Positions 3,790 to 44,042 of a DNA stretch of 44,899 bases are shown here, one piece after another; the stretch's first letter is position 1; the number at the start of each line of letters is the position of its first letter. The position numbers and the translations under genes were made by a program. Origin of the DNA: Spirochaetota bacterium (GTDB lineage: Bacteria > Spirochaetota > UBA12135 > COTS27 > JAFLEE01); the NCBI GenBank assembly GCA_017302015.1, contig JAFLEE010000039.1, positions 1 to 44,899 on the forward strand. The letters are read 5' to 3'. The notes beneath the pieces are model-generated. The model was not told the DNA's origin, did no database searches, and was given only the letters and a program-made list of their open reading frames with translations.

Positions 3790-4559
3790 CGGCGCCACCC
3801 GTTCTCGGCGAAGAATTGGCCCATGGCGGCGAGGACCTGGTCGTGGAAGGCGCTTTGGGAGATGGTCGCCACGGCGTCTCCGTCCTGCGGCCCGTAACTC
3901 CCGAAATAGGAATGGCGGCCGCCCTCGATGAGGTAGAGCACGGTGAAATTGGAATGGAGGGCGGGGTAGGGGGCCGCCACCGGGGCGATCCAGGTCGCCG
4001 GCGGGAGGAGGGAGAGGGTCTTCTCTTGGCGGGCGACGTCGTTGGTTTTTTCCCGGGAGGAGTAGAGCGACAAGACCGCCCCGCTCCACGATTTGAGGCT
4101 ATCGCCATCGGGCGGGTAGGCATCCATGAGGATGAGGCCCTTCCAAATCCCCGGCATCGCGCTCACGGCGCTGGCGGCCATGGAGCCCCCGAGGGAATGG
4201 CCGGCGATCACCCACGAAGCCACCCCGGGAAAGCGGCCCTGGAGTCTCCGGCCCGCCTCGAGGTCGAAGAAGGCGAAATGGCCGGGCATCTTGGCCACCG
4301 CCACGAAGGTGCCCTGGGCCGCGAACCGGGAAAGCAGTCGGTCATAGACATGGGTGTCGACCAGGCCTCCCGGGTAGAAGACGAGGCCGGTGGCCGCCGC
4401 CGGCGCGGAAGGCTGGAAGAGGATGGCATCCCGAGTTTCCTGGATGGTGACGCCGGGGGGCAGGGGGTCGGTCCCGAGGATGGGGCGATAACTGCAGGCG
4501 CTGACGGCGCCCGCCAGGAAGAGGGCGATGCCCACCCGGATGGAATACGTGTGATTCAT
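3786..4559 (-). CDS. Alpha/beta-hydrolase lipoprotein
   Basis: This 257-residue protein has a lipoprotein signal peptide with lipobox VSAC (lipidated Cys22), so it is membrane-anchored outside the cytoplasm. The rest is an alpha/beta-hydrolase: a conserved FYPGG strand-loop near residue 61, the nucleophile elbow GHSLGG (Ser122), and a late EGGRHSYFGSYGPQDGD segment carrying the probable catalytic His. That last segment is characteristic of the Abhydrolase_5-type families (PF12695). The substrate is unknown. There is no Shine-Dalgarno site. A TTGACC-N18-TATATT promoter ends only 10 nt before the ATG, so the leader would be about 3-4 nt. The stop overlaps the start of the barrel-like gene. Confidence 0.88.
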   Translation of the reverse strand: MNHTYSIRVGIALFLAGAVSACSYRPILGTDPLPPGVTIQETRDAILFQPSAPAAATGLVFYPGGLVDTHVYDRLLSRFAAQGTFVAVAKMPGHFAFFDLEAGRRLQGRFPGVASWVIAGHSLGGSMAASAVSAMPGIWKGLILMDAYPPDGDSLKSWSGAVLSLYSSREKTNDVARQEKTLSLLPPATWIAPVAAPYPALHSNFTVLYLIEGGRHSYFGSYGPQDGDAVATISQSAFHDQVLAAMGQFFAENGWRR

Positions 4560-4569
4560 AGAATTGAAG

Positions 4570-4599
4570 AATATACTCCCCGGGGAAACGGGGGGTCAA
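4570..4599 (-). promoter_or_regulatory. Promoter of the hydrolase lipoprotein gene, near-leaderless
   Basis: TTGACC (4599-4594), an 18-nt spacer and TATATT (4575-4570) on the minus strand end 10 nt before the ATG at 4559. Initiation 6-7 nt after the -10 would leave a leader of 3-4 nt. This matches the absence of a ribosome binding site. Confidence 0.55.
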
Positions 4600-4619: not shown

Positions 4620-5477
4620 TCAGGGTGGGATCGGCTTCTGGTTCCTCGACTTGCGGTAGCGCACGGGAGGCACGCCGGCATACTTGCAGAAGACCTTGCT
4701 GAATCGGAAGCGGTCGCAGAAGCCGAGGGATTCCGCGAGTTCGTCGAGGTCCATATTGGTGGCGCGAAGCAGGAAGGCGGCGCGCTCCACCTTGAGGCGC
4801 TGGAAATACACGAGGGGCGTGAAACCGGTGGCCTTCTTGAACCGGCGCACCAGGTAGGAGCGTTCCCAACCCACCGCGGCGGAGAGCCGATCGAGGGAGA
4901 ACGGGCGATCGAGTTGGGATTCCATGAGGCGCTGGGCATGGCGCACCGGAGACGGCGCCCGCGAGGCGGAGAGCCCCCGGGGGGCGGAGAGGGAATAGAG
5001 GAACGCGTGGAGGAGATGGGCGGAGGCCTTCAGCAGGGCGGGCGAGCCGGTATGGTATTTATAGAGGATTTCCTCGAACGCGAAACTATGGTGGGGCTCC
5101 AAAACGACGCCGCCCTGGCCGAAACCCTGGCGGTGGAGCGCTTGCAACAGCGCTTCCTCGCCCTCCTCGATGCGGAATCTGGCGTAATAGAACCCGAGTC
5201 GTTTTTGCCGCCTTGAGCCGGCCGCGGCGGCGACCCCCGGTGCACCGCGCTGGGGGAGGGAAATGGGCGGCCCCGGGAGGATATCGTGGGCCTCGGCGGG
5301 CGCGGAGAGGAAACAGGATCCCTCTGAAATGGGTTGGTCCACGCCCCGTTGGCGGAAAGCGCCGGTCCCGTGCATGAAATAGTGGAGTTCCCAGATGGGA
5401 TGGCCATGCACATGGGGGCCCGCGAGTTCGGCGGCGCCGGCATGCACATGGAGCCGGGCCATGGCCAAAATCTGCAT
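4620..5477 (-). CDS. AraC-family transcriptional regulator (first of four)
   Basis: This 285-residue protein has an N-terminal cupin-like sensor domain (HVHGHPIWELHYF near residues 22-34, typical of AraC-type sugar sensors) and a C-terminal double helix-turn-helix DNA-binding domain (about 185-280), ending in the classic second HTH around 'LAESLGFCDRFRFSKVFCKYAGVPPVRYR'-like residues. It is divergent from the large hydrolase at 5637, its most likely target. The ATG at 5477 is only 5 nt after a TACCAT -10 element paired with TTGACA at 17 nt, so the mRNA is probably leaderless. An inverted repeat over the -35 suggests autoregulation. Confidence 0.93.
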   Translation of the reverse strand: MQILAMARLHVHAGAAELAGPHVHGHPIWELHYFMHGTGAFRQRGVDQPISEGSCFLSAPAEAHDILPGPPISLPQRGAPGVAAAAGSRRQKRLGFYYARFRIEEGEEALLQALHRQGFGQGGVVLEPHHSFAFEEILYKYHTGSPALLKASAHLLHAFLYSLSAPRGLSASRAPSPVRHAQRLMESQLDRPFSLDRLSAAVGWERSYLVRRFKKATGFTPLVYFQRLKVERAAFLLRATNMDLDELAESLGFCDRFRFSKVFCKYAGVPPVRYRKSRNQKPIPP

Positions 5478-5482
5478 GGGGC

Positions 5483-5511
5483 ATGGTACGGCGGAGGGCT
5501 GCCGATGTCAA
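5483..5511 (-). promoter_or_regulatory. Leaderless promoter of the first AraC gene
   Basis: A consensus TTGACA (5511-5506), 17-nt spacer and TACCAT (5488-5483) lie on the minus strand. Five nucleotides separate the -10 from the ATG at 5477, so transcription should start at or next to the A of the start codon. Confidence 0.62.
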
Positions 5512-5521
5512 TATCCGACAT
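5505..5521. promoter_or_regulatory. Candidate operator, inverted repeat ATGTC-N7-GACAT
   Basis: The perfect 5-bp inverted repeat ATGTC (5505-5509) / GACAT (5517-5521) with a 7-nt spacer covers the -35 of the AraC promoter. It lies in the divergent AraC/hydrolase region, so a protein bound here could repress the AraC gene. Short repeats can occur by chance. Confidence 0.33.
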
Positions 5522-5561
5522 AAAACCAATCCGGGCCATGGAAGGCCTCCCCGGGAGCCCC

Positions 5562-5567
5562 TATAAT
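5562..5567 (+). promoter_or_regulatory. Candidate -10 (TATAAT) for the large hydrolase
   Basis: A perfect TATAAT lies 69 nt before the GTG start at 5637 with no good -35 at the proper distance. A weak -35 is what one expects at an AraC-activated promoter. Confidence 0.37.
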
Positions 5568-5636
5568 GGAGCACGAACCCCGGGGAGCCAATCCGCGGGC
5601 GTCCAGGGCCGCTCCGGCTCGAGAAAGGAATATTCC

Positions 5637-8600
5637 GTGAAGATAAAAACCATCCACCGCGTGATTTCCGCTCTCCTATTGGCATCCTTCGGCCTGTGCG
5701 CAAACGCACCCCAAGCGCCATCGCTCCTGGGCCTGCTGCGGTTCGATCCGAAGGGGGCCTTTCGCCTGGATGGCCTCTCCTTCGCGGTGGTTCAAATGAG
5801 CGGCGGGGGAAAATGGGTCGAGCAGGCCCGCGCCTTCCTCCCCGCGGGCGAGCCCATCCTGGGCGATGAAGGGCGCGAGCAGGCCATCGTCTGGGACAAT
5901 GCGCCGGCCCGATTCCGCATGAGGCAATGGGCGCAGGCCGCCCCGGAAGGCGTGGCCCTGCGCTATGAAGTGGAGGCGGAATTATCCGGCGCCCCCATCC
6001 GGGAATTGAGCCTGGCGGTCACGCTCCCCATCGCCCCATTGGCGGGCCGCGAGTTCCGCCTCGATGATGAACCCGTCCGCCTTCCGGCCCGTTGGGAGAA
6101 GACGCTCCTCGCCTCGCGCTCCGGGGTGCGGAGGCTCGAACTCCCCACGGAAGCGGGGACCCTCGCGTTGGAAGGGAACTTCGACGTGCGGGTCCAAGAC
6201 AACCGGGAATGGAATATCGGGGAGTACTCGGTGCGCCTGCGCTTCAGCCCCGGAAGCGGCGAGTTTACCCGCAGCGGCTTCCAGGCCCTGCTTCGCCGCG
6301 AAGCCCAATCGGGGGCCGGGGAGCAGGTCGCCATCGACCTGTCGAAGGCCGCCAATATGGATTTCGCCGATGAGGTCGAGGGGGACCGCAAGGGCGGCTG
6401 GACCGACCAGGGCCGAGAGAACGATCTGCGCGCCATGAAGCCAGGCGATATGGCCATCGGCGCCTTCCGCTTCCGGATCCTCGATGCCGCGAAGAACGGG
6501 GGCCGCGCGTGCCTCGTCTTCGCGGGGCCCCAACGCGATTATTTCCCCAAGGACGCGCGCCTTCCCCTCGCGGGGGAACGATTCGGCTATCTCAACCTCC
6601 TCCACACCACCGCCTGGACGCCGAAGGAAGGGCCCGTCGGGAGCCTCGTCGTCGCCTACCAGGATGGCGACCAAAGCGAGCATCCCGTGCTCGCCGGCGT
6701 CGACGTGGGCAATTGGTGGGGAGCGACGAGCCTCCCCAACGGGCATGTGGGCTGGACGATGGAGAACCGCCAGGCCTACGTGGGCCTCTATGTCAGCCGC
6801 TTCCGCATCAAGGACAAGCCGATTCGGGAATTGCGCCTCGTGCCCACGGGCCGGGCGGTGTGGGCCGTGGTCGCCCTCAGCGGTTCGGAGGGCGCGGCGC
6901 CGTTCCCCGCCACCGCCCCGGAGTACATCATCGCCGATGCCCGGTGGAAGCCCGTGAAGCACGAGACCTTCGCGGTGAAGCCCGGGAGCATCCTCGACCT
7001 CTCGGCGCACGTCGAAGAGGGGCCCGCCGGAAAATGGGGCCGGGTTCTCGCGGGAAAAGAGGGGCATTTCGAGTTCGAGAAGCGCCCGGGCGAGGCCGTG
7101 CGCTTCCTCGGGCCCAACCTCACCTTCAGCGCCAATTTCATCGAGAAGCCGGAGGATGCCGCGGCCCTTGCCCAGACCCTCCGCCGCTACGGCTATAATT
7201 GCGTGCGTTTCCACCATTACGACGGAGGCCTCGCCTGCGAGTCGATCTTCGGGGACGATAAGCCTCTTTCACCCGGCCAGTTCCGCCCGGAGCGCCTCGC
7301 CAAGTTCGACCAGACCTTCGCGGCGCTCAAGGCCGCCGGCCTCTACGCGACGATCGACCTCTACACGATGCGCCCCTGGAAGGCCGCGGAGATCCCGGAG
7401 TACGGCAAGGACGGCAGCCAGGAGATCAAGGGGCTCATCCCGCTCTTCGACGGCGCCTTCGAGAATTGGCGCCGCTTCGCCGAGGCCCTGCTCACCCACG
7501 TCAACCCGCATACCGGGCTGGCCTATAAGGACGACCCGGCGCTCTTCGCCATCTGCCTCGTCAACGAAGATACCCTCTTCGCCAATTGGAACAAGACCCC
7601 GGCCTCCAAGGCCGCCTACGAGAAGCGCTTCGCCGAATGGGTGAAGGGCCGCCCCTCGGACGAGACGGCCAACCGGGACGCCGCCTTCAGCCTGTTCCTC
7701 GCCGACCAGCAGATCGCGGCCAACGAGCGCATGATGGCCGCCCTGCGCAAGCTCGGCGTGAAGGCCCTCTTCTCCGGGGCCAATTACCATAACCCCATGC
7801 TCGCCGCCCGCATCCGGGCGAAATACGACTACGTGGACAACCACACCTATTGGGACCACCCCACCTTCTCCGAGGGCGATTGGAAGCCCCCGGTGGGCGT
7901 CGCCCAGCGCGGCGCGCTCACCGCGCTGGCGGGCACGCCGCGGGACATCATGGCCACCCGGGTGTTCGGCAAGCCCTTCGCGGCCACCGAGTATTGCTTC
8001 TGCTACCCCAACCATACCCGCGCCGAGGGGGGGCCGCTCATGGGCGCCTACGCCGCGCTCCAGGGCTGGGATCTCCTCAACCGCTTCGATATCGCCCTCT
8101 ACGGAGACCGCCCCCACGACGTCTCCAAGCCGACGGGCTCGTTCACCCTAAGCCGCGATCCCATCGGGCTTCTCACCGAACGCATCATCTCGCTCCTCTA
8201 CCTGCGCGGCGACGTGAAGACCGCATCCTCCAGCGCCGCCTTCGTCCTGACCCCCGAGCTGGCCCGCCGTTCCACGGCGATGAACACGTTCCCCGCGGAG
8301 TTCCAATATTTGGGCCTCGTCGCCCGCATCGGAAGCGTCGATGCGAGTTTGGGCCCCTGGTCGGCCCCCGCCGACGCGCTCCTATGCACCCTGGACGATG
8401 GCTTCACCCCGCCCACGGGCGGGCGGCGCTTGGCGCGCCTTGACGGGGCCACCCCGCCGCTCGTGTCGCCCCGGGGCAGCGTCGACCCGGTCTCCGGGAA
8501 GGCGCAGAGCGAGACCGGGGAGATCTTCCTGGACGGGTCCGCCCGGACCCTGCGGGTGCTCACCCCGCGCAGCGAGGCCTTCATCCGCTACGACAAGGGC

Positions 8601-14397: not shown

Positions 14398-15192
14398 TCA
14401 AGCCGGGATCGCCTTCCGCTTCGCGGGCTTTCCCTTGCCGTCGACTTTGCGAAGGTCGCTGGGGGAGCGGCCCGTGAAGCGCTTGAAGGTCCGGCTGAAA
14501 TGGAAGGGATCGCTGAACCCAAGATCCCGGGCGATGGTATGGATCGGGAGTTCGCTTTCGCTCAAGAGCGGCTGGGCGGTCTCGATCTTGAGGCGCAGGA
14601 AATACCGCAGCGGCGGCACCCCGAGGTGGGATTTGAAGAGGCGGATGAAATAGGAAGGATCGAGGCCCGCGTTCGAGGCGAGGGCCCGCACGTCGAGCAC
14701 CGGCTCGGCGAGGCGCCCCTGGATCTCCCGCAGGGCGCCTTCGACGGCCGCGGTCTCCTGGGCGAGTTCGGGGTGGGGGGTATTGATCTCGTAGATGAGG
14801 GACACCAGGCTATGGAACGCCGCGCGGCGCGCGTAGGGGTGGTCGGAGGCCAGGCGGGCCTTCACCGTCTCGAAGAACCAGCGCCGCTTCAGCCCGATGA
14901 AGACCTTGGGGATGCGCGCGGCGAGGAGTTTATCGATATCGGGCATGCCGCAGGGATGGAGCACGGTCTGGTAGCCGCGCAGCGAGTTCTGCTTCGTCTT
15001 CACCTTGAAGGCCAGCGCGGAGGGGAGGATGGCGAGTTCGCCGGGGCCCACCGGCACCGAGAGGCCCTCGGCGCAGAGTTTCCCGCTGCCGTCGACGAAA
15101 TACAGGAGCGTGAAGCCCTTGGGGGCCGAACCGGCCACCCCCGAGACCCCGTCGGGGCGGTACTCGCAGAAGCGCATGGGGGAGATTTCCAT
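14398..15192 (-). CDS. AraC-family transcriptional regulator (second of four)
   Basis: This 264-residue regulator has an N-terminal cupin-like half (residues 1-85) and a strong C-terminal AraC DNA-binding domain (about 160-255: VRALASNAGLDPSYFIRLFK and HTIARDLGFSDPFHFSRTFKRFTG). A Lys/Arg-rich tail follows. It is divergent from the aldo/keto reductase at 15324 and heads a minus-strand run with the phosphotransferase and CE4 genes. No Shine-Dalgarno site precedes the ATG. Instead a TTGACA-N17-TACACT promoter ends 5 nt before it, so the message is predicted to be leaderless. Confidence 0.94.
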   Translation of the reverse strand: MEISPMRFCEYRPDGVSGVAGSAPKGFTLLYFVDGSGKLCAEGLSVPVGPGELAILPSALAFKVKTKQNSLRGYQTVLHPCGMPDIDKLLAARIPKVFIGLKRRWFFETVKARLASDHPYARRAAFHSLVSLIYEINTPHPELAQETAAVEGALREIQGRLAEPVLDVRALASNAGLDPSYFIRLFKSHLGVPPLRYFLRLKIETAQPLLSESELPIHTIARDLGFSDPFHFSRTFKRFTGRSPSDLRKVDGKGKPAKRKAIPA

Positions 15193-15197
15193 GGCCC

Positions 15198-15226
15198 AGT
15201 GTAGGGCCTTCCGCTTCGAATGTCAA
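15198..15226 (-). promoter_or_regulatory. Leaderless promoter of the second AraC gene
   Basis: Consensus TTGACA (15226-15221), exactly 17 nt, then TACACT (15203-15198), then 5 nt to the ATG. The layout is the same as at the first AraC gene. An inverted repeat GAATG-N7-CATTC (15218-15234) overlaps the -35 and is a candidate operator. Confidence 0.65.
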
Positions 15227-17008: not shown

Positions 17009-17965
17009 TTACCGCTCCAGGGCGCGCTGCGCCTTTTCGCGGAACGCCGCCGGCGTCAGCCCATGCCTGCGGCGGAACGCGCGGTAGAAATGGGTGAGGC
17101 TCACGAACCCGTTCTCCGCCGCGATTTCCCCGATGGGCTCGGTTCCTTCGATGAGCGCCCGCGCCGCGCCGGAGAGGCGGAGTTCCAGAAGGTAGCGCTC
17201 GAAGGGGGCCTGGGTCCGCCGGGAAAACCAACGGCTGAAGGCCGCGGGCTTTCGCCCCACGGATGCGGCGACCTCCTTCTGGGTGAGCGCTTCGCCGCGG
17301 CGCTCATGGAGGGAGAGGAGGAGGCGGTCGAAGGAGGGATCCTCTCCGGCCGTGTCGCCCGTCGGGCCCGAGGAGAGGGGTTCGAGGCGCCGCCCGTCCC
17401 CCAACGCCAGGGCGCATTCGACGAGGAACGACAAGAGGCCGGACACGCGCCTCCCATCCCCGGGCCGCCAATGGGAGGCGGCGGCGAGGAAGTCGCTGGC
17501 CGCGTCCCGGGCCGGGCCCTTGAGCCGGAGGCCCGGCCTCGCCGCCCCCAAGAGCGCGCGGACGCCGGAGAGTTCATGGTGGGTGGGGATCAAATCGCCC
17601 AACGCGCCCGGGCGGAATTGGAGCACGCGGGTGCGCGCCTTTTCCCCGGTGCGCCTCGCCCAGCCATGGGGCAAGTCGCCGCCGAGGAGGTAGACGTCGC
17701 CGGGGGCGAAGGGCGCGACCGAGTCGCCGATGAAGCGATGGCCGTGGCCGCCGAGGAACTGGATGAGTTCGATTTCGGGATGCTGGTGCCAATGCAGGCC
17801 GGGCACCTCGATGAGGAAATCGCGCAGCAGGTAGGAACCCGCGGCGAGCTGCGGCGCGGCGGCCCGCCAATAATCGACCTGTTGGCGCTCGGGGAGGCGG
17901 CGGTTTTTCATGGGGTAAACCAGGGATAATCGCCCCGGGCTCGCGGGCATTTCGCCCCGGCGCAA
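17009..17965 (-). CDS. AraC-family transcriptional regulator (third of four)
   Basis: This regulator has an N-terminal cupin (HWHQHPEIELIQFLGG) and a C-terminal double-HTH domain ending in ENGFVSLTHFYRAFRRRHGLTPAAFR. The start is not certain. The TTG at 17965 (318 residues) stands exactly 5 nt after a TATAGT -10 element, the spacing seen at the other AraC genes here. ATGs at 17950 and 17911 have no clear ribosome binding site; the latter (MKNRRLPERQ) would give a conventional cupin N-terminus. I favour 17965 only because of the promoter spacing. The gene is divergent from the DUF4832 protein at 18049, and the two promoters share bases. Confidence 0.88.
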   Translation of the reverse strand: MRRGEMPASPGRLSLVYPMKNRRLPERQQVDYWRAAAPQLAAGSYLLRDFLIEVPGLHWHQHPEIELIQFLGGHGHRFIGDSVAPFAPGDVYLLGGDLPHGWARRTGEKARTRVLQFRPGALGDLIPTHHELSGVRALLGAARPGLRLKGPARDAASDFLAAASHWRPGDGRRVSGLLSFLVECALALGDGRRLEPLSSGPTGDTAGEDPSFDRLLLSLHERRGEALTQKEVAASVGRKPAAFSRWFSRRTQAPFERYLLELRLSGAARALIEGTEPIGEIAAENGFVSLTHFYRAFRRRHGLTPAAFREKAQRALER

Positions 17966-17970
17966 AGCCT

Positions 17971-17978
17971 ACTATACT
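17971..17978. promoter_or_regulatory. Overlapping divergent -10 elements
   Basis: TATAGT on the minus strand (17976-17971) serves the AraC gene, and TATACT on the plus strand (17973-17978) serves the DUF4832 gene. The two hexamers overlap, so polymerase cannot occupy both at once. Neither has a good -35, which suggests activator dependence. Confidence 0.42.
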
Positions 17979-37059: not shown

Positions 37060-38424
37060 TCAGAGGGAACGGGATTGGGGCGCGCGGAGTTCATAGCAGA
37101 GGAGCCGCTGGCGGTATCGCAAGTAGACGAGCCCGTCTGACACCACCGGCTTCGTCCACGTCATCTCTTTCGCCCCCGCCATGGCGCCGGGGAAACTCGT
37201 TACCAGGCGCAAGCCGGCGGGATCGGGGCGCACGAGGAAAAGGTTCCCCTTATGGTCCTGGCAGAGCAGGTGCCCGTCGACGCGCACGCTCGTGCCGCAA
37301 CCGATGGCGTTGGTCTTCCACGCGGTGCGGCCCGTGGCCAATTCGAGGCAGACGAAGTCGCCTCCGTTTTGCTTGCTGAAGCCGGTGTAGCCGTAGAGGT
37401 ATCCGCCGAGGATATGGGGATCGGAGTGGTGGGCCTGGAGCGCCATCGTCTTCCACTTCACCGCGGCCCCCGCGGGGCCCGCCTGGATGGCGAGGGCGCC
37501 CCGGGAAGCCGCGGCGCTGACGACGATCAGGTCGCCCTCGACGATGGGGGTGGTGATATTGCCCGCATTGGCGGTCTTCCACGGGATATCCCAAAGGCGC
37601 TGTCCCGCAGCCGGTTCGAACGCCGCGAGGGCATCGGCGTGGAGGATGAGGAGGGTTTCCTTTCCTGCGAGGTGCGCGAGGACCGGCGAGGCGTAGGATG
37701 CGGGGCCGCCCGGGCGCTTCCAGAGGAGTTCACCGCTTGATTTTCGAAGGGCCAGGGCCGTCGCATCGCCGCCGGCTTGCATGTAGAGATATTCCCCAGC
37801 GATGAGGGGCGAAGAGGCGTGGCCCCACTCGGGGGAATCGGCGCCATCGGCCTTCAGGTCGCGCCTCCAGACGAGGGCCCCGTCGGAGAGGTTCCACGCG
37901 CAGAGTTGGCCGCCGCGGCCCAGGGTGTAGACCCGATCGCCGTCGATGGCGGGGGTGGACCGGGGGCCGGTGCCGTAATTATCCGGATTGGTGGCGGCGT
38001 ATCCCGAGACCCAGCGCAGCGCGCCGGTCTTGGCGTCGAGGCAGAAGACGAGGTCGCGGTCTTTCTCCCGCCCGGTGACCACCAGATGGCGGCCTTGGAT
38101 GGCCGGCGCTCCCCAGGAGGCGCTATCGGAACCTTGGCAGAGGTAGGCGATTTCCCAGGTTTTTTTGAGGCCGCCGCGCCAATCGGTGCGGATCCCCGTG
38201 GTGAGGCTGGCGTTGTCATGGCGGGCGCCGCGCCAGGAGGGCCAATCGTCGGGTCCGCGCGCGATGGGAGAGCCGACCCCGGTGGGGGATGGGATGGCGG
38301 TGGTTTTCGCGGCGGTATCGCTTAATCCGTGGAGAAAATACCTTTCGAGCCCCCAAAGGATGGCGATGGCGGCCAGGGCAACCGCAGCGACAGTCAGGAG
38401 AATCTTTCGGATTTTCTTGCTCAT
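37060..38424 (-). CDS. Membrane-anchored PQQ-like beta-propeller protein
   Basis: This 454-residue protein has an N-terminal membrane anchor or uncleaved signal (ILLTVAAVALAAIAILWGL) followed by DDWPSWRGARHDN and about eight PQQ-like repeats (for example LVFCLDAKTGALRWVSG, LCAWNLSDGALVWRRD and YLYGYTGFSKQNGGDFVCLELATGRTAW). Such propellers act as scaffolds or as quinoprotein-like domains; no quinone-binding or catalytic Asp is evident, so enzymatic activity is doubtful. A TACAAT ends 5 nt before the ATG with no ribosome binding site, as in the AraC genes. It is a paralogue of the protein at 39272. Confidence 0.88.
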   Translation of the reverse strand: MSKKIRKILLTVAAVALAAIAILWGLERYFLHGLSDTAAKTTAIPSPTGVGSPIARGPDDWPSWRGARHDNASLTTGIRTDWRGGLKKTWEIAYLCQGSDSASWGAPAIQGRHLVVTGREKDRDLVFCLDAKTGALRWVSGYAATNPDNYGTGPRSTPAIDGDRVYTLGRGGQLCAWNLSDGALVWRRDLKADGADSPEWGHASSPLIAGEYLYMQAGGDATALALRKSSGELLWKRPGGPASYASPVLAHLAGKETLLILHADALAAFEPAAGQRLWDIPWKTANAGNITTPIVEGDLIVVSAAASRGALAIQAGPAGAAVKWKTMALQAHHSDPHILGGYLYGYTGFSKQNGGDFVCLELATGRTAWKTNAIGCGTSVRVDGHLLCQDHKGNLFLVRPDPAGLRLVTSFPGAMAGAKEMTWTKPVVSDGLVYLRYRQRLLCYELRAPQSRSL

Positions 38425-38429
38425 GGCCT

Positions 38430-38435
38430 ATTGTA
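38430..38435 (-). promoter_or_regulatory. Candidate -10 (TACAAT), leaderless spacing
   Basis: TACAAT on the minus strand is separated from the ATG at 38424 by exactly 5 nt. No -35 match is seen, so the support comes from the shared spacing. Confidence 0.42.
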
Positions 38436-43274: not shown

Positions 43275-43280
43275 TATAAT
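43275..43280 (+). promoter_or_regulatory. -10 (TATAAT) of the fourth AraC gene, leaderless spacing
   Basis: TATAAT is followed by six bases and then the GTG at 43287, the usual -10 to transcript start distance. It therefore supports a leaderless mRNA. The -35 is weak. Confidence 0.5.
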
Positions 43281-43286
43281 GGAAGG

Positions 43287-44042
43287 GTGCTGACCCTCAC
43301 ATCGGCCAACCGCCACGAGACGCCGGGATTCGGCAATGCCATGCACGCCCACCGATTCTGGGAAGTCGTGCTCTATACCCGCGGCACGGGCAAAATCCTC
43401 CTGAAAGACGGGGAGCGCGCCTTCCAACCCGGGCGCATCTGCCTCTTCCCGCCCAATCTGGAGCACGCCGACCGTTCGACCTCCGGCTACGAGAGCCTCT
43501 GGATCTGGTTCACGGGCTTCTCCAGCGCCCGGCGCAGCCCGCTCGTGGTGGACGACCCGTCCCACCATCCCTGCCGGCTTCTGGCCGAACTCCTCTACCA
43601 CGAGCACCGCTTGGCCCCGGGGTCGGTGCTCTGCCGCGAGACCCTCCAATTGCTCCTCGGCTACCTGCTGCGCCACGGCTCCCAAGACCCCGACGATAGC
43701 CGGGTCGAGGCCATCAAGCACCTCCTCATCGCCAATGTGGCCAATCCCGATTTTCGGCTCCACGAGGGCCTCGCCCGCCTGGGGAGTTCCGCCGCCGTCC
43801 TCCACGAACTCTTTAAAAAACACACCGGCATCTCGCCCCTCCAGTACCTCATCGACCTGCGCCTGCGCGATAGCCGCGTGCTGCTGCGTACCCCCGGCCT
43901 GACCCTGGCCGCCCTCGCGCCCAAGGTGGGGTTCCGCGACCCCTACCATTTCTCCCGCGTGTTCAAGCAGAAGGTGGGCCTCTCCCCCTCCGAGTTCCGG
44001 GCGGGGAAGAAGAAGCGCAGGGCAAAACGGTCGCGGCCATGA
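43287..44042 (+). CDS. AraC-family transcriptional regulator (fourth of four)
   Basis: Counted from the GTG at 43287 this regulator has 251 residues: a cupin domain (AHRFWEVVLYTRGTGKIL) with FPPNLEHAD, and a C-terminal AraC domain (LARLGSSAAVLHELFKKHTG and LAALAPKVGFRDPYHFSRVFKQKVGLSPSEFR) with a basic tail. The GTG is preferred to an ATG 35 codons upstream because TATAAT overlaps that upstream stretch and the upstream residues have no family resemblance. It is divergent from the DUF4832 multidomain gene. Its stop overlaps the next gene's ATG. Confidence 0.92.
   Translation: MLTLTSANRHETPGFGNAMHAHRFWEVVLYTRGTGKILLKDGERAFQPGRICLFPPNLEHADRSTSGYESLWIWFTGFSSARRSPLVVDDPSHHPCRLLAELLYHEHRLAPGSVLCRETLQLLLGYLLRHGSQDPDDSRVEAIKHLLIANVANPDFRLHEGLARLGSSAAVLHELFKKHTGISPLQYLIDLRLRDSRVLLRTPGLTLAALAPKVGFRDPYHFSRVFKQKVGLSPSEFRAGKKKRRAKRSRP

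What the first reader, a model, noticed from the sequence alone, without database searches (positions are those of the whole stretch)
5475..5511. All four AraC regulators appear to have leaderless mRNAs
Seen directly: the AraC genes at 5477, 15192, 17965 and 43287 each have a -10-like hexamer (TACCAT, TACACT, TATAGT, TATAAT) exactly 5, 5, 5 and 6 nt before their start codons (ATG, ATG, TTG, GTG). Two of the four also have perfect TTGACA at 17 nt. None has a Shine-Dalgarno site. The propeller gene at 38424 has the same TACAAT-N5-ATG layout and the lipoprotein gene at 4559 a 10-nt version. Most of their neighbours have good Shine-Dalgarno sites. Known: leaderless genes with such a -10-to-start spacing are abundant in Actinobacteria and Deinococcus. 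Inference: this lineage translates a class of regulator mRNAs without a leader.
Basis: partly seen in the sequence, partly recalled or inferred. Interest (0 to 1): 0.78.

Follow-up and report, generated by a model that had tools for sequence, protein, structure and literature searches.

The report
Leaderless, Shine-Dalgarno-free AraC regulator genes
In this uncultured spirochaete the large AraC family of gene regulators has dropped the usual ribosome-docking signal, and many of these genes have their promoter touching the start codon so that the mRNA should begin at the first codon, while the genes they sit back-to-back with use ordinary leaders.

Summary
Three of the four AraC genes in the window (starts 5477, 15192, 43287), the propeller gene (38424) and the lipoprotein gene (4559) carry a -10 element 5-10 nt before the start codon and no Shine-Dalgarno (SD) site. 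The fourth AraC start (TTG at 17965) is doubtful. I tested 1,342 genes over 1.96 Mb of the same genome. A -10 signal peaks 5-6 nt before starts, displaced spacings do not show it, and a TTGACA-like element not used in the model appears 17 nt further up. So a leaderless class exists, about 6-15% of genes. AraC genes are over-represented in it: 34% against 11% with an untrained promoter matrix, about 24% against 6% net of decoys. The sharper fact is that the AraC family has no SD signal above background (7/118; decoys 7/118), against 456/1224 in other genes. In 87 divergent AraC/partner pairs, only the partner has an SD in 47 and only the AraC gene in 3. A class relative with 40% G+C repeats the SD loss (1/31 against 38/79); a small Bacillota set does not (8/15). 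Leaderless genes and their bias to transcription genes are known; family-wide SD loss in AraC regulators I did not find described. No transcript ends were measured.

The parts
5475..5477 (-). ATG start codon of AraC gene 1 (CDS 4620-5477), predicted mRNA 5' end
   Evidence: Pfam HTH_18 and AraC_binding
5483..5488 (-). -10 element TACCAT, 5 nt before the start codon
5506..5511 (-). -35 element TTGACA, 17-nt spacer
5562..5567 (+). TATAAT, likely -10 of the divergent partner gene, about 70 nt before its GTG
   Evidence: inference
5626..5639 (+). AGGA Shine-Dalgarno core, 7 nt, then a likely GTG start codon of the divergent partner (CDS to 8990)
   Evidence: gene in SD class 0.87; coding-only start is 5679
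15190..15192 (-). ATG start codon of AraC gene 2 (CDS 14398-15192)
15198..15203 (-). -10 element TACACT, 5 nt before the start codon
15221..15226 (-). -35 element TTGACA, 17-nt spacer
17971..17976 (-). TATAGT, 5 nt before a TTG codon (17965) of AraC gene 3 (HTH domain 17036-17269); start uncertain, no -35
   Evidence: undecided
43275..43280 (+). -10 element TATAAT, 6 nt before GTG 43287 of AraC gene 4 (CDS 43287-44042); no clear -35
   Evidence: leaderless 0.97
38430..38435 (-). -10 element TACAAT, 5 nt before ATG 38424 of a PQQ/BamB-type propeller gene
   Evidence: leaderless 0.97
4570..4599 (-).
   Evidence: 0.75

Best explanation
A sigma-70-type promoter (TTGACA, 17 nt, TATAAT, often with an extended TGn) is placed so that +1 falls on or within a few bases of the start codon. 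The mRNA then has no leader and no SD, and translation must start by the 5'-terminal start codon route (70S or IF2-assisted). The genome otherwise uses SD initiation with an intact anti-SD. AraC-family regulators as a group have given up SD initiation, and the leaderless layout is the best-supported replacement for at least a quarter, and perhaps half, of them; the rest probably have short SD-free leaders or weaker, activator-dependent -10 elements. Their divergent neighbours keep leaders with SD sites. The likely effect is low, separately controlled translation of the regulator, and a compact operator region of about 150 bp. Shown by sequence statistics: promoter position, SD absence, asymmetry between the two sides. 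Inferred: transcript 5' ends, 70S route, functional reason.
For: Spacing peak with signal-free starts. Mixture model: TAtAAT at spacings 5-9 learned, decoy spacings do not keep TATAAT. TTGACA (4 or more of 6) at exactly 17 nt in 20% of leaderless calls against about 2% elsewhere and in SD genes, plus TGn extended -10, neither used in the model. Untrained matrix, one prior: AraC 40/118 above 0.5 (27 above 0.9) against 3-19 (0-7) at displaced spacings; others 129/1224 against 47-76. AraC SD 7/118, equal to decoys, others 456/1224, p 3e-14. Paired divergent genes: SD only at partner 47, only at AraC 3, p 4e-11; leaderless only at AraC 33, only at partner 4, p 1e-6. 16S 3' end GGATCACCTCC intact. 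AraC paralogues are far apart (best-paralogue identity median 32%, maximum 47%), and a leaderless gene's nearest paralogue is leaderless no more often than chance (33 of 60, base rate 60/110), so this is not one recent duplication. Class relative G003: AraC SD 1/31 against 38/79.
Against: No transcript 5' ends. Gene starts are my own predictions, without proteomics. About a third of AraC genes show neither signal. Displaced spacings of 9-15 nt also show some AraC promoter excess, so part of the family may have short leaders. In G003 the leaderless part of the signal is weak (7/34 against 6/106, p 0.016; AraC decoys 0.06-0.19).
Confidence: 0.8

Rival explanations
1. AraC genes are SD-free but mostly have ordinary short leaders; translation starts on unstructured 5' UTRs without SD, and leaderless cases are a minority tail.
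For: A third of AraC genes have no -10 at the leaderless spacing; excess at displaced spacings 9-15; in G003 most AraC genes fall into the 'none' class, 19 of 34.
Against: The largest peak is at 5-8 nt in G000, three to four times the mean of displaced spacings, with a -35 at 17 nt.
Confidence: 0.35
2. Artefact: AraC starts are mispredicted, so their SD sites are missed and chance TANNNT words are picked up.
For: Codon bias is weaker near N termini and no proteomics is available; AraC 3 of the window is such a doubtful case.
Against: Testing every plausible start gives no SD excess either (21/118 against decoys 18 and 22; others 427/773 against 127 and 134); -35 elements at 17 nt and flat decoys cannot come from misplaced starts.
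Confidence: 0.06
3. General property of AraC genes in all bacteria (for example an ancestral compact regulator-target module), not of this lineage.
For: AraC genes of other Spirochaetota families are also SD-poor: 11/45 against 30/56, p 0.004; -10 at 5-8 nt 6/45 against 0/56. VirF21 of Shigella, an AraC-like protein, has a leaderless mRNA (PMC5101355).
Against: In the small Bacillota set AraC genes have SD sites as often as neighbours or more often (8/15 against 9/27).
Confidence: 0.15
4. It reflects only gene position: leaderless promoters are common at divergent, first-in-unit genes and AraC genes are mostly such genes.
For: Leaderless calls are 85% first-in-unit; 91 of 118 AraC genes are divergent.
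Against: Difference holds among first-in-unit genes (SD 18/108 against 537/746, p 2e-28), among divergent genes with signal-free starts (7/91 against 145/385), and against the partner in the same intergenic region.
Confidence: 0.05

Closest known systems
Leaderless genes with TA-like signal upstream of the start (Zheng et al. 2011, PMC3160421)
   Same: Same layout; also reports that transcription genes (COG K) are more often leaderless
   Different: Spirochaetes there have only 3.9% on average in 6 of 18 genomes; no family-level statement on AraC in the passages read
-10 region adjacent to ORFs in Deinococcus-Thermus (Zhong et al. 2025, PMC12340547)
   Same: The same idea: -10 next to the ORF yields leaderless mRNA
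   Different: Different phylum, general expression mode; only abstract and outline read
Leptospira interrogans TSS map (PMC5243855)
   Same: Spirochaete with about 440 leaderless mRNAs (leader under 10 nt)
   Different: Over-represented classes there are R, H, E, F and G, not transcription; no AraC effect reported in the passages read
Mycobacterium tuberculosis leaderless transcriptome (PMC3898074)
   Same: Leaderless and SD genes divide by function; a single class (toxin-antitoxin pairs) is strongly leaderless
   Different: Class is toxin-antitoxin rather than AraC
Shigella VirF21 leaderless mRNA (PMC5101355)
   Same: AraC-like regulator translated from a leaderless mRNA
   Different: A single gene-internal promoter making a short isoform, not a family-wide layout

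Membership tests
Leaderless (lmRNA) genes | -10 element at a spacing that puts +1 at the start codon, enriched over displaced controls | tested here: met
Leaderless (lmRNA) genes | Independent -35 element at 17 nt from that -10 | tested here: met
   20% against about 2%
Leaderless (lmRNA) genes | No SD site before the start | tested here: met
   AraC 7/118, equal to decoys
Leaderless (lmRNA) genes | Transcript 5' end within 0-5 nt of the start codon | not testable with these tools
   needs dRNA-seq or 5' RACE
AraC/XylS family regulators | C-terminal HTH_18 domain, with or without AraC_binding N-terminal domain | tested here: met
   four window proteins; 150 scored places in the genome
SD-led initiation system of the host genome | Anti-SD CCUCC at the 16S 3' end and SD enrichment before other genes | tested here: met

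The most novel reading that the evidence does not exclude
In this class of Spirochaetota the whole AraC regulator family is kept off SD-dependent initiation, so that regulators and their divergent target genes answer to two different initiation routes of the same ribosome pool; any condition that favours 5'-terminal start codons would then raise all AraC regulators together over their targets.
Probability: 0.2. Interest if true: 0.8.

Novelty: new variant of a known kind. Interest (0 to 1): 0.58.

Why it matters
Leaderless genes are usually described as a scattered fraction of a genome. Here one regulator family of well over a hundred members is set apart as a block, with an internal control: the partner gene across the same 150-bp intergenic region is SD-led. 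That gives a testable case of translation mode being allotted by gene function, and it affects start-codon annotation of AraC genes in such genomes.

Tried and rejected
Class-specific priors exaggerate the contrast, so shared-prior and signal-free tests were added. Gene-position, start-misprediction and recent-duplication explanations were tested and not supported. A regulator-general explanation was tested with LacI-type sensors and response regulators and is weak, though the non-AraC leaderless list does contain more one-component regulators than its SD control (7 Peripla_BP_3, 3 LacI, 2 GntR, 2 TetR_C_33, 2 HTH_IclR matches against none of these among the 25 families listed for the control). 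Phylum-wide pattern TTGA-N18-20-TATAAT-N5-7-ATG is in excess over N14-16 (781 against 504; 42 genomes up, 10 down), which is only suggestive because many genomes are AT-rich. A first Bacillota/Spirochaetota comparison read AraC genes on one strand only and was replaced. The literature search for AraC with leaderless mRNA gave VirF-type papers and little else.

Full report
What was checked. The four genes are AraC-family by Pfam: HTH_18 in all, AraC_binding in three. The 38424 gene is a PQQ/BamB-type propeller, and the 4559 gene an alpha/beta hydrolase.

Setting. The window is contig 99 of a 5.43-Mb genome, 93% complete; the sampled stretches have 65% G+C. RpoB places the genome as sister of COTS27 in the Spirochaetota with full support, 60% identity. 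COTS27 is described as a marine spirochaete of its own order (PMC7444263). HTH_18 gives 225 candidate places, of which 150 were scored, all over the cut-off. The 16S 3' end carries the anti-SD (GGATCACCTCC).

Genome-wide test. I read 1.96 Mb, called 1,342 genes from coding statistics only and labelled 118 AraC genes by the Pfam places plus an HMM built from them. With starts chosen without any upstream signal, TANNNT peaks at 5-6 nt before the start: AraC 7.3% and 4.5%, others 2.6% and 2.6%, most other spacings near 1%. A mixture model learned SD (AGGAG at 4-8 nt) and a second class (TAtAAT at 5-9 nt, 16% of genes); when the second class was displaced to 16-24 or 30-38 nt it did not keep TATAAT. 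In the second class, a TTGACA-like hexamer that had played no part in the model occurs at a 17-nt spacer in 20% of genes (about 2% at other spacers and in SD genes), and a TGn extended -10 appears. This is good evidence that these are sigma-70 promoters whose +1 lies at the start codon.

Size of the class. Three estimates differ, and the lowest is the safest. Untrained consensus matrix with one prior: 40/118 AraC (34%) and 129/1224 others (11%) above 0.5, against means near 12 and 60 at displaced spacings; net about 24% and 6%. Trained model with shared prior: 48/110 and 174/1232. Trained model with group priors and -35: 49% and 14%, decoys 8-25% and 5-7%.

SD absence. With signal-free starts, an SD 4-mer at 4-10 nt is found in 7/118 AraC genes, exactly the number at each of two decoy windows, and in 456/1224 others (decoys 71 and 75), p 3e-14. 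Allowing any plausible start gives 21/118 (decoys 18 and 22) against 427/773 for first-in-unit others (decoys 127 and 134). So the family-wide fact is the lack of SD; leaderless promoters are the part of it that can be recognised.

Paired control. In 87 divergent AraC/partner pairs (median gap 154 bp) SD is at the partner only in 47 and at the AraC gene only in 3 (p 4e-11), rates 59% and 8%. Leaderless calls are at AraC only in 33 and at the partner only in 4 (p 1e-6) with one prior for all. The window's own example is the 5477 gene (TTGACA-17-TACCAT-5-ATG) against its partner (TATAAT at 5562, AGGA at 5626, GTG at 5637).

Not ancestry, not position, not all regulators. AraC paralogues are distant (best-paralogue identity median 32%, maximum 47%), and a leaderless gene's nearest paralogue is leaderless at the base rate (33 of 60; 60/110 overall). 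The contrast holds among first-in-unit genes. LacI-type sensor genes are 8/32 leaderless and 19/32 SD, and response regulators 8/10 SD. The non-AraC leaderless set is mixed but contains several one-component regulators that do not appear among the families listed for the SD control.

Relatives. G003, same class, 40% G+C and 119 HTH_18 matches, repeats the SD loss: 1/31 AraC against 38/79 others, p 2e-6; its leaderless signal is weaker (7/34 against 6/106, p 0.016). AraC genes of other Spirochaetota: SD 11/45 against 30/56 (p 0.004), -10 at 5-8 nt 6/45 against 0/56. L218 and L301, two loci with similar upstream regions, carry TTGACA-17-TAGCAT-6-ATG (sequences, spacing read by eye). In a small Bacillota set AraC genes do have SD sites (8/15). 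The samples outside G000 are small.

Literature. Leaderless genes and their bias to COG K are known (PMC3160421), as is a large leaderless set in Leptospira (PMC5243855), the -10-next-to-ORF mode in Deinococcus-Thermus (PMC12340547), and one AraC-like leaderless mRNA, VirF21 (PMC5101355). In M. tuberculosis a different single class, toxin-antitoxin pairs, is strongly leaderless, and proteins from leaderless mRNAs are less abundant in exponential growth (PMC3898074). That supports, but does not show, a low-expression role here. I found no report of a family-wide SD loss in AraC regulators in the library searched.

Verdict. Everything on mRNA ends and on the mode of initiation is inference until 5' ends are mapped.

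Noticed in passing
whole genome G000: HTH_18 gives 225 candidates, with 150 scored and all over the cut-off, in a 5.4-Mb genome; the class relative G003 has 119, while most other Spirochaetota sampled have 0-27. An AraC expansion particular to this class, with paralogues under 48% identity.
   Followed up: partly
non-AraC leaderless set, alignment A1: Seven Peripla_BP_3 proteins, plus LacI, GntR, TetR and IclR types, appear among 117 non-AraC leaderless genes and none among the families listed for 117 SD controls: other one-component regulators may lean the same way.
   Followed up: partly
window 5475-5640: Compact divergent module: leaderless AraC on one side, TATAAT plus a leader of about 60-65 nt with AGGA on the other side; a good pair for a two-reporter test.
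   Followed up: no
genome G034: An AT-rich member of the phylum has many near-identical TTGACAAATAAAATTATTCTGTTATAATATTnTTATG sequences, as if a promoter-start unit had been copied around the genome; 59 matches to the pattern against 15 at the control spacing.
   Followed up: no
L218, L301: AraC genes in other Spirochaetota with TTGACA-17-TAGCAT-6-ATG, the same leaderless layout; the two upstream regions are alike, so count them as one case.
   Followed up: partly
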